Shown piece by piece: positions 1,968 through 12,945 of a stretch of 25,277 bases of DNA (position 1 is the stretch's first letter; each line of letters starts with the position of its first letter). This DNA comes from a virus, in the IMG/VR virus record IMGVR_UViG_3300045738_000348, positions 1-25,277 of that record; one strand, written 5' to 3'. Made by a program: the position numbers and the translations under genes. Under the pieces are notes generated by a model. That model was not told where the DNA came from and did not search any database. It worked only from the letters and a program-made list of their open reading frames with translations.

Positions 1968-1980
1968 ATTATCCTCCTAT

Positions 1981-2053
1981 TGCGGCAGATGGAATTCGAA
2001 CCCATACCTCCGGATCCGTCTGTCCGGTGTTCTACCAATTAAACTACTGCCGC
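1981..2053 (-). tRNA. tRNA-like gene with 8-nt anticodon loop, isotype undetermined
   Basis: The minus strand folds as a cloverleaf: acceptor stem of 7 bp (GCGGCAG/CTGCCGC), D-arm GTTT/GAAC, anticodon stem CCGGA/TCCGG, 4-nt variable region, T-arm ATGGG-TTCGAAT-TCCAT, and discriminator A. No CCA is encoded. The anticodon loop reads CAGACGGA, eight bases rather than seven, with no T at the position expected for U33. The isotype cannot therefore be read with confidence; GAC, ACG or a four-base anticodon are all possible. Acceptor, D and T arms are otherwise convincing. It could be an expanded-anticodon tRNA, a decayed tRNA or a tRNA mimic. Confidence 0.72.
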
Positions 2054-2055
2054 AC

Positions 2056-7062: not shown

Positions 7063-7090
7063 AGTCTACCCTTCCTTTTTGTTTAACTAC

Positions 7091-7161
7091 TGGGTTCGGA
7101 GGGATTTGAACCCTCAACCTATCCGTTATGAGCGGAGTACTCTCCATTGAGCTACGAACCC
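7091..7161 (-). tRNA. tRNA with CAT anticodon (Met or Ile2)
   Basis: The cloverleaf is clear: acceptor stem GGGTTCG/CGAACCC, D-arm GCTC/GAGT, anticodon loop CTCATAA (anticodon CAT), T-arm GAGGG-TTCAAAT-CCCTC, discriminator A, no encoded CCA. The outermost anticodon-stem pair is a C/T mismatch, leaving four good pairs. A paired first base argues against an initiator tRNA. CAT may be elongator methionine, or isoleucine after lysidine modification; sequence alone does not decide. It lies 10 bases downstream of the structured segment 7172-7287. Confidence 0.88.
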
Positions 7162-7171
7162 ATCAAATAAG

Positions 7172-7287
7172 ATCAGATAGAGTAGGTTTTAAGATACTGG
7201 ACTACCTAGGTAACCAGTTCCGTACCTACATCTTGGTTAGCAGCACAAATAGTGCCCCAAGGTTTTAATTTAAACTATCTATCTGAT
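7172..7287 (-). ncRNA. candidate structured RNA between two tRNAs
   Basis: This 116-nt segment is closed by a perfect 10-bp inverted repeat (7172-7181 with 7278-7287, ATCAGATAGA). Inside are two nested hairpins. One has 7232-7236 paired with 7257-7261 (CTTGG/CCAAG) around GCAC/GTGC (7243-7246 with 7252-7255). The other has 7182-7187 paired with 7224-7229 (GTAGGT/ACCTAC) around ACTGG/CCAGT (7196-7200 with 7214-7218). The result is a three-way junction. Its 5' end is the base after the discriminator of tRNA-Leu, so tRNA 3' processing would generate it. No T-arm or anticodon is present, so it is not a normal tRNA. Small stable RNAs in the T4 tRNA cluster are a conceptual parallel. The pairing is visible in the sequence; function is unknown. 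Confidence 0.6.
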
Positions 7288-7360
7288 TGCCAGAGGTGGA
7301 AGTCGAATCCACAAACGCCAAATTTTAAGTTTGGTGGCTTTGCCGTTAGCCTACTCTGGC
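7288..7360 (-). tRNA. tRNA-Leu(TAA) with short variable arm
   Basis: All arms pair: acceptor GCCAGAG/CTCTGGC, D-arm GGCT/AGCC, anticodon stem CCAAA/TTTGG with loop CTTAAAA (U33 present, anticodon TAA), T-arm GTGGA-TTCGACT-TCCAC, discriminator A. No CCA is encoded. A TAA anticodon reads the leucine codon UUA, which should be common in this AT-rich genome. Leucine tRNAs normally carry a long class II variable arm, but here the variable region is only five bases. The gene is 11 bases downstream of a zinc-ribbon gene and directly abuts the structured segment 7172-7287. Confidence 0.88.
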
Positions 7361-7636: not shown

Positions 7637-7738
7637 GCCATCGGCCCGACTTGCACGTTCTGCTAGCTATAGAATTCGGTACTTGACCATGACGTCCGGA
7701 CGTCTACGTCAACTCTTAGAATCCTTCTAGACGATGGC
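7637..7738 (-). ncRNA. candidate structured RNA, 102 nt
   Basis: A 7-bp closing stem (7637-7643 with 7732-7738, GCCATCG/CGATGGC) bounds two good hairpins. The first is 7717-7721 with 7725-7729 (TAGAA/TTCTA, 3-nt loop). The second is two-part: 7683-7687 with 7708-7712 (TTGAC/GTCAA), a symmetric 3x3 internal loop, then 7691-7695 with 7700-7704 (GACGT/ACGTC) capped by CCGG. A third weak helix (TTCT/AGAA) is possible near 7660-7675. The segment has no convincing ORF and is more GC-rich than its surroundings. It lies between two zinc-finger genes and 5 bases from the next structured segment. There is no U-run, so a terminator is unlikely. Confidence 0.5.
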
Positions 7739-7743
7739 ATAAG

Positions 7744-7816
7744 ATAGCCAGCCTAGGTTTGCAAGTTATCAAGACCACTCGGCGAAAGTAGTATTAATAA
7801 GCCCTAGACTGGCTAT
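7744..7816 (-). ncRNA. candidate structured RNA, 73-nt long-stem element
   Basis: A continuous 14-bp stem (7744-7757 with 7803-7816; ATAGCCAGTCTAGG against CCTAGGCTGGCTAT, one G-U pair) closes a 45-nt internal region. That region can form a further 7-bp hairpin (ACTACTT against GAGTGGT, with G-U pairs) and a TTAT/ATAA helix. The length matches a tRNA, but no T-loop or anticodon arm is present. The stem starts 3 bases after the stop codon of the upstream zinc-finger gene. There is no downstream U-run, arguing against a terminator. It may be a processed small RNA, an RNase site or a regulatory element. Confidence 0.5.
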
Positions 7817-8369: not shown

Positions 8370-8398
8370 ATTGTACCACAAAGCCAAGCCACTGTCAA
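8370..8398 (-). promoter_or_regulatory. sigma70 promoter, near consensus
   Basis: On the minus strand a perfect -35 box TTGACA (8393-8398) is followed after exactly 17 bases by TACAAT (8370-8375), preceded by TGG, which gives an extended -10. Transcription would begin near 8363 and proceed toward the zinc-finger genes, structured RNAs and tRNAs. It lies in a non-coding region. This is the clearest promoter in the window and implies use of host RNA polymerase for this transcript. Confidence 0.8.
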
Positions 8399-8604
8399 CC
8401 CACGTTCTGACAGATTCTCAGGAGCGAGTTATCGGACCAAGGGCCATCGATCGAGGGCTGGACTGATTCCCCATAGATAGGAACTAGAAGCCAGCAGCGG
8501 GGGCGTCAGAGGCTATGGCTGGCCACCATGAAGGCACATTCACTGACCGCCACCAGCTTCATGGAGACAATGATAATATCGATAGGATATGTCGTAATTA
8601 AGAG
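8399..8604 (-). other. GC-rich non-coding stretch with inverted repeats
   Basis: The 206 bases between the promoter and the stop of the 262-aa gene hold no convincing ORF. Hand counts give about 57% G+C in 8401-8520, well above the surrounding genes. Inverted repeats are present: CCATGAAG/CTTCATGG (8526-8533 with 8557-8564), GCCAGC/GCTGGC and CCATAG/CTATGG around 8480-8525. CTGTCA/TGACAG (8392-8397 with 8408-8413) overlaps the -35 box. No U-run follows any of these. It could be a 3' structured RNA of the upstream transcript, a regulatory region or an origin. Confidence 0.4.
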
Positions 8605-9393
8605 TTATTTATCTGGAGCCCAATTAGGTGTAAGGAAATTTGGTCTATCATCTTTTACTCTTGGGTAAAACCATAAATTAGTAGTGACTCTAGATATTTT
8701 CTTTATGAATTCTTTATCGTTTAAGTAAGCCAAGTATAGGCCCGTCCAAAATGGACTTAAAAGTTTTGCAATAGAAAAATAATTATGTCTTTCTGTTATT
8801 GCTTGATTTATATTTCCCAACTTCTTAAAATTATAGGTCGTATGATCTAAAGTTATTTTCTGAGGTGTATTAGATAAGATGATCTCTGGAGCAGTAAACA
8901 CACTGGGGTATATTGCTACTGGTACTTTACACTCCTTCCAAGGTTGAGCAGCTTCATTAAGTTTAAATACCTCACTTTGTGTATGGTACTTAAAAAAACC
9001 AGTAATACCGTAGGGCTCCATATCAAGAGCTATTGACCCCCACTTGTTGGCCTTTTTAACCATAGCCTCATGATTCTTTTTGTCAAACAACCATCGTCTA
9101 GGATGTTTATTAACTTTAGTATGGGTAAATCTTAAACCTGGAATATAATCCCAACCCATTTCTTCGGCAAAGTCTTTCCATTTATTATGATGTTGTTCAC
9201 TATCAGTAGGAACACCTTTAACCTTATGGGTATGTTCGGCATAAACATTAATAATACCTGTAATCTGTGTTTTTAAATGTGGATGCTTTCTAAGATTTCT
9301 ACCATACCACCACTCTAAATGGGATGGATGAGTCCATAACCATCGTTTGGTTTGAATAGTAGGAACTCTAGTGGGTCGTCTTCTTGTCGGCAT
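8605..9393 (-). CDS. uncharacterised protein, 262 aa, possible TIM-barrel enzyme
   Basis: Not recognised with certainty. The N-terminus is basic (MPTRRRPTRVP) and Trp-rich. The middle has alternating strand and helix segments with SIALDMEPYG (about residues 118-127) and VPVAIYPSVF. The 'LDMEPYG' placement recalls catalytic strands of glycoside-hydrolase-like TIM barrels. As the last gene of the structural half it might be a lytic or carbohydrate-active enzyme, but no family signature proves it. AAGGA lies seven bases before the ATG. Confidence 0.6.
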   Translation of the reverse strand: MPTRRRPTRVPTIQTKRWLWTHPSHLEWWYGRNLRKHPHLKTQITGIINVYAEHTHKVKGVPTDSEQHHNKWKDFAEEMGWDYIPGLRFTHTKVNKHPRRWLFDKKNHEAMVKKANKWGSIALDMEPYGITGFFKYHTQSEVFKLNEAAQPWKECKVPVAIYPSVFTAPEIILSNTPQKITLDHTTYNFKKLGNINQAITERHNYFSIAKLLSPFWTGLYLAYLNDKEFIKKISRVTTNLWFYPRVKDDRPNFLTPNWAPDK

Positions 9394-9429: not shown

Positions 9430-10116
9430 TTACATTTCATTCGTCCAAAGACCTACATGCCCAATAACATTCCATGTTCCAGCAACAGCACAAATTACAT
9501 GAAGAGTCTCCCCAATAACTCCATTAACATTTTCTAGATATTTACCACCACCAGTAGTTGCCGGAGTATCTGCCGGTGTAGTAATTGTTTCTGAACCATC
9601 AGGATCTACTCTTAAAATTTCTGCGGCACCAACAGCAAAGTAATATTGTAATCCAACAGTAGCAACAGGAAGTGTACCCGTTATTGTACCACTTGCCCCT
9701 GTATTAGTAAATAATGTTCCGTTGTCTTGTATTTCTATATTAAAATTAGCTGTTTTAGCAGATACATTAAATAAAGGAATCTTAAGATTTATCCAATTCG
9801 TGCCATCAAAAAGTAAATGTTTTTCATCATCTTGAATATAGGCCGTCATCCCTTCTTCAGCAACTATAAACTTCCAACCCTGGTCATAATATGCTATTTG
9901 GTTATCTTTAGAATTAAAGACACCAGTAGTTCCACTACCAGCTACAAGCCAAACATCCCCATTTGCTGGACTACCTAGCCCACTCCCGACATCAATACCT
10001 AATACTGATAACATTACAGTAGCATCAATAGTTCGTAATGCTGTATTAAAAAGGTTCTCACCACCGGATTGTCCTACTACCATTTCGGTAATATTTAGCC
10101 GTAATGTTACTGCCAT
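9430..10116 (-). CDS. DUF2793-like tail/fibre protein, 228 aa
   Basis: Residues about 40-110 show the DUF2793-like pattern: SPANGDVWLVAGSGTTG, NQIAYYDQGWKFIVAEEG, then HLLFDGTNWINL. The C-terminal half is a separate beta-rich domain (GTLPVATVGLQYYF... IGETLHVICAVAGTWNVIG) that resembles the small beta domain seen in the DUF2460 protein and the 111-aa protein. Such domains occur in phage tail fibres and tip-associated proteins. The gene lies just after the intrinsic terminator, so its expression needs read-through or its own start signal. AGGA is found eight bases before the ATG. Confidence 0.65.
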   Translation of the reverse strand: MAVTLRLNITEMVVGQSGGENLFNTALRTIDATVMLSVLGIDVGSGLGSPANGDVWLVAGSGTTGVFNSKDNQIAYYDQGWKFIVAEEGMTAYIQDDEKHLLFDGTNWINLKIPLFNVSAKTANFNIEIQDNGTLFTNTGASGTITGTLPVATVGLQYYFAVGAAEILRVDPDGSETITTPADTPATTGGGKYLENVNGVIGETLHVICAVAGTWNVIGHVGLWTNEM

Positions 10117-10130
10117 TTAATTATTCCTAA

Positions 10131-10178
10131 ATAAAAAAGCCCCTCTACCCTAAGTGTAAAGTCTTAGAGCAGAAGGGC
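10131..10178 (-). terminator. strong intrinsic terminator of tail operon
   Basis: On the minus strand a 16-bp stem (10163-10178 with 10139-10154, including a few G-U pairs) with an 8-nt loop is followed directly by TTTTTTATTT. It lies 26 bases past the stop of the TipJ-like gene, where the tail operon would be expected to end. The loop and U-run fit a rho-independent terminator well. Confidence 0.88.
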
Positions 10179-10203
10179 CTTAATACTATTATGGGTCAAA
10201 TTT

Positions 10204-12945
10204 TTACGTTACCGTAATGGAGGTACTTCCTGAACCCAATGCCACAAGAGTACCTTGGTGAAAAACTTGGACTTTAACTGAACTTGCTCCTTCCCCATGC
10301 TGTGCCGCAGTAGCTGTTGCAGTTCTTGCGGGGCCAACTACATCCGTTTCAGTAAACTTTAAAACATCTGACCCATCTCTATACTCTACTGTATAAAGTT
10401 CATCCCCAAATTCATTGGCGGGGAACGGTTGGCTACCGAATTGCTTCCATCTTTTTGTAGTAACCCTCTCCCATGTAACTGTTATATCATTAGAACCATT
10501 CCTTGTTCCTTCCACTTGTGCTGGAGCGAATGGCGTAGCTGCTCCTGCATTGAATGTATGAGTATGTAATGGTACATCAGCTAAAGCAGCTCTTACACTA
10601 ATGGCCTTCATCCCTAACGTAGAACTTATAAGATCGGAAGAAATACCATAGTATGCTATGTTGCCAGTTTTAAGGGGTATGAATCTATCAAACAAAGCAT
10701 GAGTTGTAGTCTTTGATTGTGTTCCTCGCAAACCTCTAAGCAGACCAGAAAGTGTGTAAGTTCCATCCTCCTGTAGAAATGCAGAAGAAAAAGCAATAAT
10801 CTCATCACCTAGCAATGCAATGTTTTGACCCTCAAGAACTTGTAATCTTGTTATTGTTGTTAGTTGCCCATTGAATAGGACTATAGCTACTGTATTGGTA
10901 ATATCCCATGTTTCAGTATCGCCATCCGCTAAAACTCCACCAGCCCCTTCACCTACAACAGATATACCCATTATAGATTCATTAGGTACATCAATAGCTA
11001 AGGATAGCCCACTATCTGTGATATCAGTCGTTCCTATATAAAGTTGCCCACCTTGCCATCCTCCCAATCTATCATAATCAGTTAGAGCAAAATAGGCCCC
11101 AGATGTATTGACATGGGAATTGGAAAGGGGGGCAATATCTATGAATCCTATAGCTATAAGTGAATCACCACTAGGATCTTGATCTACTGGACCAATATCT
11201 ACTTCATCAACAGTTGGAGAGAAATTAAGCGACTCTATAGACTCTATCACACCTAAACATTCAAGTCTATAGTCATGCCCTCTTTTTATCTCTGTTACTA
11301 TTATGCGAAACTTATTACCACCGGATGTAACAGTCACTATTTCAGTTTCATTGAGAGTTAGCCTACTAGGTGGAAGAGTAAATGAAACTGATTGGCGATT
11401 TATCCAAGCACCCCATAAAAACCGTGAAGCTATTTCACTAGCCTTCGCAGTCGTCATGGTAATAGGGAAATCAAGAGTGAAAGATGTATCTACAGTTGCA
11501 TTGACGCGTCTCTCCTGATGATTACCTTTCTGCATAGAATTTGTAAGATCTAAATAATTTACATTAACAGTTTTAGGTAGATTAAAACTAGCAACATCAG
11601 TGATATCTAATGCTCTAGGGGCATCCCCATCTGTTGAATGAGCAGCTAGTTCAGTAGCAACTAGAGGAATGACAGTAGCATTTTCTCTATGCTTAAATGT
11701 TAATTTTCCATCAACTTCAAATGCCACTAGATTGAATGCTTGTATCAATGGCTGTATGGCATTCATCATAGCCGTTGGGCCGAAGATAGTATACCCATTT
11801 ATGTTAGTATCTTGTATATCACTTACATCTATATTTCTAGCAGGTATGCCCCCTCTTTCTAGAAGAGTGCTAATAGTATCCCCAAGTGTCTGAGTAGTAG
11901 CTTTTTCCACTAAAAACTCTAGACGTGGAACACGATCATTGAATGCATCTAGCTTTAGATTGTCAAAATATACATAAGCTGTATGCCTATAAGCCGGAGA
12001 TATTCTAAGAGGAAATAAACTTTCTGGTAATCTACTGGCTTCTAAGAAAATATTTTGACCCTGACTATCATCACCTTTGTAGATAGTTATAGCGTCGGCA
12101 GTCTTACCTACTCTGAAGAAGTTAAATCCTGGAACTTGTGAGAAAGATTGAACTATTGTTACAGTCGCACCTTCAGCTTCCGTAACAGTAAGCCCTACTA
12201 ATAATGACCAAATATCTAAAAATGTAATATTGGCATCAGTAGGATCAACGTGTGCTCTTCTAACTACACCAGCTATAAGATTATTTCCAGCATTAGCAAA
12301 ACCTGAAATATCAATTAACGAGGGAGTAGTCCATTCAGTAAGATCAATAGAATTAGTACTAGACTTTAATCTTAAAAGTATGGGAAGAAACCCACCAAAT
12401 CCTAATACTTTTTCTACAGATAAAGTAGTTCCAGTCTGTTCAGGCCGAGCATCAATATGTCTCCAGATAGGAACCCCATCAGCCCAAATCTTTCTGACAT
12501 TACTAATCTCGCCCTCGCCTACAGCGATTGCTAGATCCATCGAATAATTATATGTGGTTAATTCTTGATAGTCCCCAGAACTAATTCCACTGGTATCTAT
12601 CTCTTCAACTAACTTTTTTTCTTTTAACTTTGAAGCGTATATAATAGTGCCAGCTAATCGATTAGATGGGCCAAACGATAGAGGTATAGGAGCACCTTCG
12701 GAAGTAAATCCAAGAGGTATCTCCCCTATTCTACGACCTTCTACTTTTGATACATTAGGGAAGGCATAGCTAAGCCCTACTTGAATTCCTACAGCAATTA
12801 ACCCACTGCCAATAGCAGATCCAATGGCCGCAGCACCTACTGCTGGTCCAGCAGCAGATGCAGCGGCCGTAGAAGTAAACGCCTGAGTAGTAGCTTGAGC
12901 ACCTACTTGTGTAGCAGCTAATGTAAAAGAAGATCCTATACCCAT
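10204..12945 (-). CDS. TipJ/GTA gp15-like tail tip hub protein
   Basis: 913 aa. The N-terminal 65 residues are an Ala/Gly-rich hydrophobic segment, as in many tip-attachment proteins. Family hallmarks follow: LSFGPSNRLAGTIIYASKL, later SPAYRHTAYVYFDNLKLDAF with NDRVPRLEFLVEK, and a C-terminal beta-rich, fibronectin-like region. The protein would form the central hub at the tail tip, like lambda J and GTA gp15. Position after DUF2163 and NlpC/P60 genes is the conserved order. It is shorter than typical GTA gp15, which may reflect a missing C-terminal part. The ATG lies six bases after the previous stop, with a weak ribosome binding site. Confidence 0.88.
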   Translation of the reverse strand: MGIGSSFTLAATQVGAQATTQAFTSTAAASAAGPAVGAAAIGSAIGSGLIAVGIQVGLSYAFPNVSKVEGRRIGEIPLGFTSEGAPIPLSFGPSNRLAGTIIYASKLKEKKLVEEIDTSGISSGDYQELTTYNYSMDLAIAVGEGEISNVRKIWADGVPIWRHIDARPEQTGTTLSVEKVLGFGGFLPILLRLKSSTNSIDLTEWTTPSLIDISGFANAGNNLIAGVVRRAHVDPTDANITFLDIWSLLVGLTVTEAEGATVTIVQSFSQVPGFNFFRVGKTADAITIYKGDDSQGQNIFLEASRLPESLFPLRISPAYRHTAYVYFDNLKLDAFNDRVPRLEFLVEKATTQTLGDTISTLLERGGIPARNIDVSDIQDTNINGYTIFGPTAMMNAIQPLIQAFNLVAFEVDGKLTFKHRENATVIPLVATELAAHSTDGDAPRALDITDVASFNLPKTVNVNYLDLTNSMQKGNHQERRVNATVDTSFTLDFPITMTTAKASEIASRFLWGAWINRQSVSFTLPPSRLTLNETEIVTVTSGGNKFRIIVTEIKRGHDYRLECLGVIESIESLNFSPTVDEVDIGPVDQDPSGDSLIAIGFIDIAPLSNSHVNTSGAYFALTDYDRLGGWQGGQLYIGTTDITDSGLSLAIDVPNESIMGISVVGEGAGGVLADGDTETWDITNTVAIVLFNGQLTTITRLQVLEGQNIALLGDEIIAFSSAFLQEDGTYTLSGLLRGLRGTQSKTTTHALFDRFIPLKTGNIAYYGISSDLISSTLGMKAISVRAALADVPLHTHTFNAGAATPFAPAQVEGTRNGSNDITVTWERVTTKRWKQFGSQPFPANEFGDELYTVEYRDGSDVLKFTETDVVGPARTATATAAQHGEGASSVKVQVFHQGTLVALGSGSTSITVT

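What the first reader, a model, noticed from the sequence alone, without database searches (positions are those of the whole stretch)
7172..7287. Undescribed structured RNA placed exactly between two phage tRNAs
A 116-nt segment begins at the base after the tRNA-Leu discriminator and ends 10 bases before tRNA-Met. It closes with a perfect 10-bp stem and contains two nested two-part hairpins. tRNA maturation enzymes would release it as a discrete RNA. It has no tRNA T-arm or anticodon. Seen: pairing and positions. Inferred: a stable RNA with its own role, comparable in place to the small stable RNAs in the T4 tRNA cluster.
Basis: partly seen in the sequence, partly recalled or inferred. Interest (0 to 1): 0.75.

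Follow-up and report, generated by a model that had tools for sequence, protein, structure and literature searches.

The report
Orphan structured RNA between phage tRNAs
Between two tRNA genes of an uncharacterised phage lies a 116-nucleotide stretch that folds into a compact four-armed RNA resembling no known RNA family; the fold is much more stable than chance, but with no relatives found, its release as a discrete RNA and its function remain unproven.

Summary
On the minus strand, the 116 nt start at the base after the tRNA-Leu(UAA) discriminator and end 9-10 nt before tRNA-Met. They close with a perfect 10-bp stem. The MFE is -40.9 kcal/mol (z -5.35); the whole spacer, bounded only by the tRNAs, has z -4.3, and 3 of 4000 shuffles are as stable. 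No Rfam family matches, and a phage-tRNA model finds no tRNA there.

No homolog was found in phages, viral contigs, genomes or 48 relatives, so covariation cannot be tested. Release as a discrete RNA is inferred. Structured spacers between phage tRNAs are not rare: this one ranks third of 24 measured.

Best reading: a co-transcribed, excised, stable non-coding RNA, alike in place and size to T4 rnaC/rnaD and the KVP40 pseudo-tRNAs, but not demonstrably related. A passive structured spacer is the main rival.

By-product: 113-125-nt phage 'pseudo-tRNAs' (KVP40, S13, GAP32, CBB, Erwinia phages) share a covarying hairpin insert in the anticodon-loop region; my paper searches found no description of it.

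The parts
7172..7287 (-). The 116-nt structured element (four-way junction)
   Evidence: MFE -40.9, z -5.35; spacer z -4.3, 3 of 4000 shuffles
7278..7287 (-). 5' strand of the perfect 10-bp terminal stem (AUCAGAUAGA)
7172..7181 (-). 3' strand of the terminal stem (UCUAUCUGAU)
7262..7275 (-).
   Evidence: pair probability about 0.7-0.8
7232..7261 (-). Second arm: CUUGG/CCAAG stem with inner hairpin GGCAC-UAUUU-GUGCU and bulge GCUAA
   Evidence: pair probability 0.96-0.98
7182..7229 (-). Third arm: GUAGGU/ACCUAC stem with a bulged 12-bp hairpin; abuts the terminal stem
   Evidence: pair probability mostly above 0.9
7288..7360 (-). tRNA-Leu(UAA), directly upstream in the transcript; no encoded CCA
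7090..7162 (-). tRNA-Met(CAU), downstream; no encoded CCA
8370..8398 (-). Candidate sigma-70-type promoter TTGACA-17-TACAAT upstream of the gene run that holds the tRNAs
   Evidence: 11 of 12 consensus matches; a consensus match only

Best explanation
It is a non-coding RNA made as part of the tRNA transcript. Shown: the position, the four-way-junction fold and its excess stability. Inferred: tRNA 3'-end processing right after the Leu discriminator sets the 5' end; RNase P cleavage at the 5' end of tRNA-Met, with exonuclease trimming of the 9-10-nt tail back to the 10-bp stem, sets the 3' end; the stem then protects a discrete RNA of about 116 nt. Having only short single-stranded loops, it would more likely act by shape, binding a protein as a non-decoding RNA, than by antisense pairing. 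The protein-binding step is speculation.
For: Flush placement after the Leu discriminator and 9-10 nt before Met. Stable self-contained fold, with both tRNAs intact in the precursor. Same place and size class as annotated extra RNAs in other phage tRNA clusters: T4 rnaC 139 nt and rnaD 119 nt, KVP40 pseudo-tRNAs 3-5. Precedent for a functional RNA cut from a tRNA transcript: the E. coli leuZ-3'ETS sRNA sponge, 5' end made by RNase E (PMC5222698).
Against: No homolog, so no covariation. No expression data. Host and its processing enzymes unknown. Structured inter-tRNA spacers occur elsewhere. No target or protein partner identified.
Confidence: 0.45

Rival explanations
1. Passive structured spacer. 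The sequence folds on itself so that the two tRNAs fold and are processed correctly, and is then degraded; it has no role of its own.
For: With the native spacer the tRNA pairs form at 0.95 (Leu) and 0.89 (Met); with shuffled spacers the means are 0.89 and 0.64, and only 11% of shuffles do as well.
Against: With no 116-nt element at all, only the 9-nt tail, the tRNAs fold nearly as well (0.95 and 0.84), so a 116-nt insulator is not needed. Tight arrays without spacers are common in the compared phages.
Confidence: 0.3
2. Remodelled tRNA gene. An array tRNA kept its cloverleaf junction, but hairpins replaced the anticodon and T loops, leaving a non-decoding tRNA-shaped RNA.
For: Junction layout 2-0-2-0 resembles a tRNA; tRNA-like gap patterns occur in 15 of 3741 stem-kept shuffles (chosen after seeing the fold). 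A model of expanded phage tRNAs aligns it end to end, with UA at 8-9, a D-arm and a T-stem with a 34-nt insert: 5.4 bits, E 0.04 for this spacer alone. It shares TAGTTTAA with the window's third tRNA at the same place.
Against: A model of 26 ordinary phage tRNAs gives at most 1.4 bits on the RNA strand, against 67-68 bits for the three real tRNAs. The 5.4-bit match is E 8.1 over the window. No T-loop and no GG in the D-loop; ARAGORN with introns allowed finds nothing.
Confidence: 0.12
3. Chance fold of a non-functional spacer, noticed because it was looked for.
For: Single sequence only. A 116-nt scan of this window has other places with z below -4, at least one of which is a terminator-like hairpin.
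Against: 3 of 4000 shuffles of the whole spacer are as stable, and terminal stems of 8 bp or more occur in 0.7% of shuffles. The 5' boundary is set by the tRNA, not chosen from a scan.
Confidence: 0.13

Closest known systems
T4 rnaC and rnaD (species 1 and 2 small stable RNAs of the T4 tRNA cluster, NC_000866)
   Same: Non-coding, 119-139 nt, in a tRNA cluster within a few nt of a tRNA.
   Different: rnaC has a genuine T-arm and z -4.6; rnaD shows no unusual stability, z -0.8. No sequence similarity to the window RNA.
KVP40 pseudo-tRNAs and relatives (expanded phage tRNAs, 113-125 nt)
   Same: Length class, place in tRNA clusters, a hairpin inside the region of the second (anticodon) arm.
   Different: They keep tRNA ends and T-arm (Rfam tRNA 41-60 bits) and a conserved C(A/U)GCA after the insert hairpin; the window RNA has none of these and scores 5.4 bits.
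E. coli leuZ 3'ETS sRNA sponge
   Same: A spacer cut out of a tRNA transcript (PMC5222698).
   Different: It acts by base pairing with sRNAs as an external 3' spacer; the window RNA is internal, highly folded, and no pairing target is known.
Bacterial Y RNA-like RNAs (YrlA, RF02553)
   Same: From general knowledge: 5' and 3' ends pair in a long stem that closes further modules.
   Different: No YrlA match here at E <= 10, and no T-arm.

Membership tests
tRNA (RF00005) | Covariance-model match | tested here: not met
   No Rfam tRNA match in the spacer at E <= 10; phage-tRNA model R3 1.4 bits or less on this strand
tRNA (RF00005) | T-loop GTTCNAN and a 7-nt anticodon loop | tested here: not met
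   Fold: third-arm and second-arm loops are replaced by hairpins
tRNA (RF00005) | Four-way cloverleaf junction with a 2-nt linker before the D-arm and none after the T-arm | tested here: met
   Fold gaps 2-0-2-0; 15 of 3741 shuffles have tRNA-like gaps. The middle linkers (0, 2) are shorter than usual
Expanded phage pseudo-tRNAs (alignment A6) | Match to family model R2 | tested here: not met
   5.4 bits, E 8.1 in the window, E 0.04 on the spacer alone; members score 74-110 bits
Expanded phage pseudo-tRNAs (alignment A6) | C(A/U)GCA after the insert hairpin | tested here: not met
   The window RNA has CUGCU
T4-type small stable RNA of a tRNA cluster | Located in the cluster next to a tRNA, about 120-140 nt, non-coding | tested here: met
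T4-type small stable RNA of a tRNA cluster | Accumulates as a discrete stable RNA | not testable with these tools
   Needs RNA from infected cells
YrlA Y RNA-like (RF02553) | Covariance-model match | tested here: not met
   No match at E <= 10

The most novel reading that the evidence does not exclude
A tRNA-array gene reshaped into a non-decoding, cloverleaf-shaped RNA with hairpins in place of the anticodon and T loops, excised by tRNA processing and acting in trans, for example as a decoy for host proteins that bind or cut tRNAs.
Probability: 0.12. Interest if true: 0.7.

Novelty: new member of a known kind. Interest (0 to 1): 0.4.

Why it matters
Phage tRNA clusters hold extra RNAs whose function is, to my knowledge, still unknown decades after T4 rnaC and rnaD were found. 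A compact, well-folded example with clear ends is a good object for testing whether such RNAs are released and do something. The comparison set assembled here shows that one class of them, the long 'pseudo-tRNAs', is a conserved family with a covarying insert rather than debris.

Tried and rejected
Homologs were sought by: blastn in phages; exact patterns from the RNA and from tRNA-Leu in viral contigs and genome contigs; blastn and nhmmer on 150 fetched loci; a covariance model over the window, over 20 and 28 records of relatives, and over other phage tRNA clusters. All hits were at chance level. Relatives by helicase (31-49%) and tail tube (best 61%, a 5.6-kb fragment) have almost no tRNAs: one tRNA in the 48 records searched, so in these data the cluster is private to this lineage. 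Rejected: tRNA with an anticodon-loop intron and metazoan-mitochondrial-type tRNA, Y RNA, any Rfam family. The neighbouring protein 8605-9393 finds no relatives. The insulator idea was tested by folding probabilities; it is compatible but not needed.

Full report
Context. The window is a 25,277-bp viral record with a tail module (tape measure, tail tube, Rcc01698-like tail protein) and a SNF2-type helicase. The identified genes and the three tRNAs are on the minus strand. A strong sigma-70-like match (TTGACA-17-TACAAT, 8398-8370) lies upstream, and the scan calls no minus-strand terminator between it and the tRNAs. Order of transcription: promoter, 128-aa ORF, two further structured stretches, 80-aa CxxC ORF, tRNA-Leu, the RNA, tRNA-Met, two small ORFs, helicase.

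Observation. The fold is a closed four-way junction. A perfect 10-bp terminal stem is followed by 'UA', a 4-bp hairpin (GUUU-AAAUUA-AAAC), directly a 5-bp stem carrying an inner 5-bp hairpin and a 5-nt bulge, then 'AU', then a 6-bp stem with a bulged 12-bp hairpin that abuts the terminal stem. In the 291-nt precursor the three units fold separately. Because a fold with chosen ends is biased, I tested the entire 125-nt spacer, whose ends are set by the tRNAs alone: z -4.3, 3 of 4000 shuffles as stable, terminal stem of 8 bp or more in 29 of 4000. With the stem fixed, 64 of 3741 interior shuffles reach the observed energy, so much of the signal comes from the stem.

Is it a known RNA? Rfam gives nothing in the spacer even at E 10, apart from one 25-nt viral pseudoknot match far below its cut-off. 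A tRNA model built from 26 phage tRNAs (three of them the window's own) scores the window's tRNAs 67-68 bits and the RNA strand at most 1.4 bits. ARAGORN with introns allowed finds nothing.

Homologs. None found; the search list is under 'tried and rejected'. By helicase and tail tube the nearest relatives are distant (best 49% and 61% protein identity) and lack tRNA clusters.

Base rate. In seven other regions of phage tRNA clusters, T4 and the window, I measured 24 same-strand spacers of 60-260 nt between ARAGORN tRNAs: mean z -1.9. The window spacer is third (z -4.4 in that run), behind spacers of XacN1 (-5.7) and Myrna (-5.2); only one other, in Myrna, has a terminal stem of 10 bp or more. 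Some of these spacers contain tRNAs or other genes that ARAGORN missed, so this is a rough yardstick. It shows that structured inter-tRNA spacers are not exceptional in phages.

Comparison with known cluster RNAs. T4 rnaC (139 nt) has a true T-arm and z -4.6; rnaD (119 nt) has no unusual stability. KVP40 has three annotated pseudo-tRNAs of 113-124 nt; I found similar ones in GAP32, CBB, S13, nt-1, CZ01, D482, D479 and two Erwinia phages. Fifteen aligned sequences (A6) show tRNA ends and an insert in the anticodon-loop region with a 7-bp hairpin. All seven of its pairs have changes on both sides; 92% of cells are paired against 59% in shuffles, covariation score 0.84 against 0.23. The hairpin is followed by CAGCA or CUGCA. 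A model of this family (R2) finds further copies, one unannotated in KVP40. The window RNA scores 5.4 bits, E 8.1 in the window or 0.04 if the spacer alone is searched, aligned end to end in tRNA register. Together with the plain-tRNA result I treat this as not supporting membership, and at most as a hint of tRNA-like layout.

Mechanism. Shown: place, fold, stability, lack of family. Inferred: co-transcription; excision at the Leu discriminator (both tRNAs lack encoded CCA, so an RNase Z-type cut, or RNase E plus trimming, is possible) and at tRNA-Met by RNase P; protection by the stem. A role in trans is speculation; precedent for functional tRNA spacers exists (leuZ-3'ETS, PMC5222698). The rival, a passive spacer, is compatible with folding calculations, but the array would fold nearly as well without the element.

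Verdict. The interpretation as an independent stable RNA is plausible but unproven, with no relatives to support it. Interest 0.4.

Noticed in passing
L248 6405-6517, 8071-8191, 8202-8314, 8433-8555 (-) (KVP40); L255 972-1094 (GAP32); L256-L259, L262-L265: Phage 'pseudo-tRNAs' of 113-125 nt in Vibrio, Cronobacter, Pectobacterium and Erwinia phages share a conserved insert in the anticodon-loop region: a 7-bp hairpin with strong covariation (score 0.84 against 0.23 shuffled), then C(A/U)GCA. Annotated as pseudo, tRNA-OTHER, tRNA-Ser, tRNA-Lys or not at all; my paper searches found no description. Could be an unrecognised mini-intron or a non-decoding tRNA-like RNA.
   Followed up: partly
window 7640-7735 and 7747-7815 (-): Two more structured stretches in the same gene run: a 7-bp GCCAUCG/CGAUGGC-closed element and a long hairpin; together z -4.3, no Rfam match.
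   Followed up: partly
window 1980-2054 (-): Third tRNA has an 8-nt anticodon loop (CAGACGGA; ARAGORN 'gacg', Val or Arg), as in frameshift-type tRNAs.
   Followed up: no
L250 1190-1328 (+) (Mycobacterium phage Myrna): A 139-nt structured spacer next to tRNA-Met with an 11-bp terminal stem has a sub-threshold match to YrlA Y RNA-like (27 bits, E 0.0013, gathering score 69).
   Followed up: no
window 7288-7360 (-): tRNA-Leu(UAA) has a short variable loop, unlike the long-arm leucine tRNAs usual in bacteria; UUA is the commonest leucine codon in the window's genes (220 uses).
   Followed up: no
window about 10134-10181 (-): A 19-bp hairpin followed by a T run between the tail gene 10204-12945 and gene 9430-10116, probably an intrinsic terminator; among the most stable local folds in the window.
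   Followed up: no
window 8400-8604: A stretch upstream of the candidate promoter that looks richer in G+C than the 38.6% window average; no ORF of 60 aa or more covers it, and the 8207-8604 fold is not unusually stable (z -0.25).
   Followed up: no
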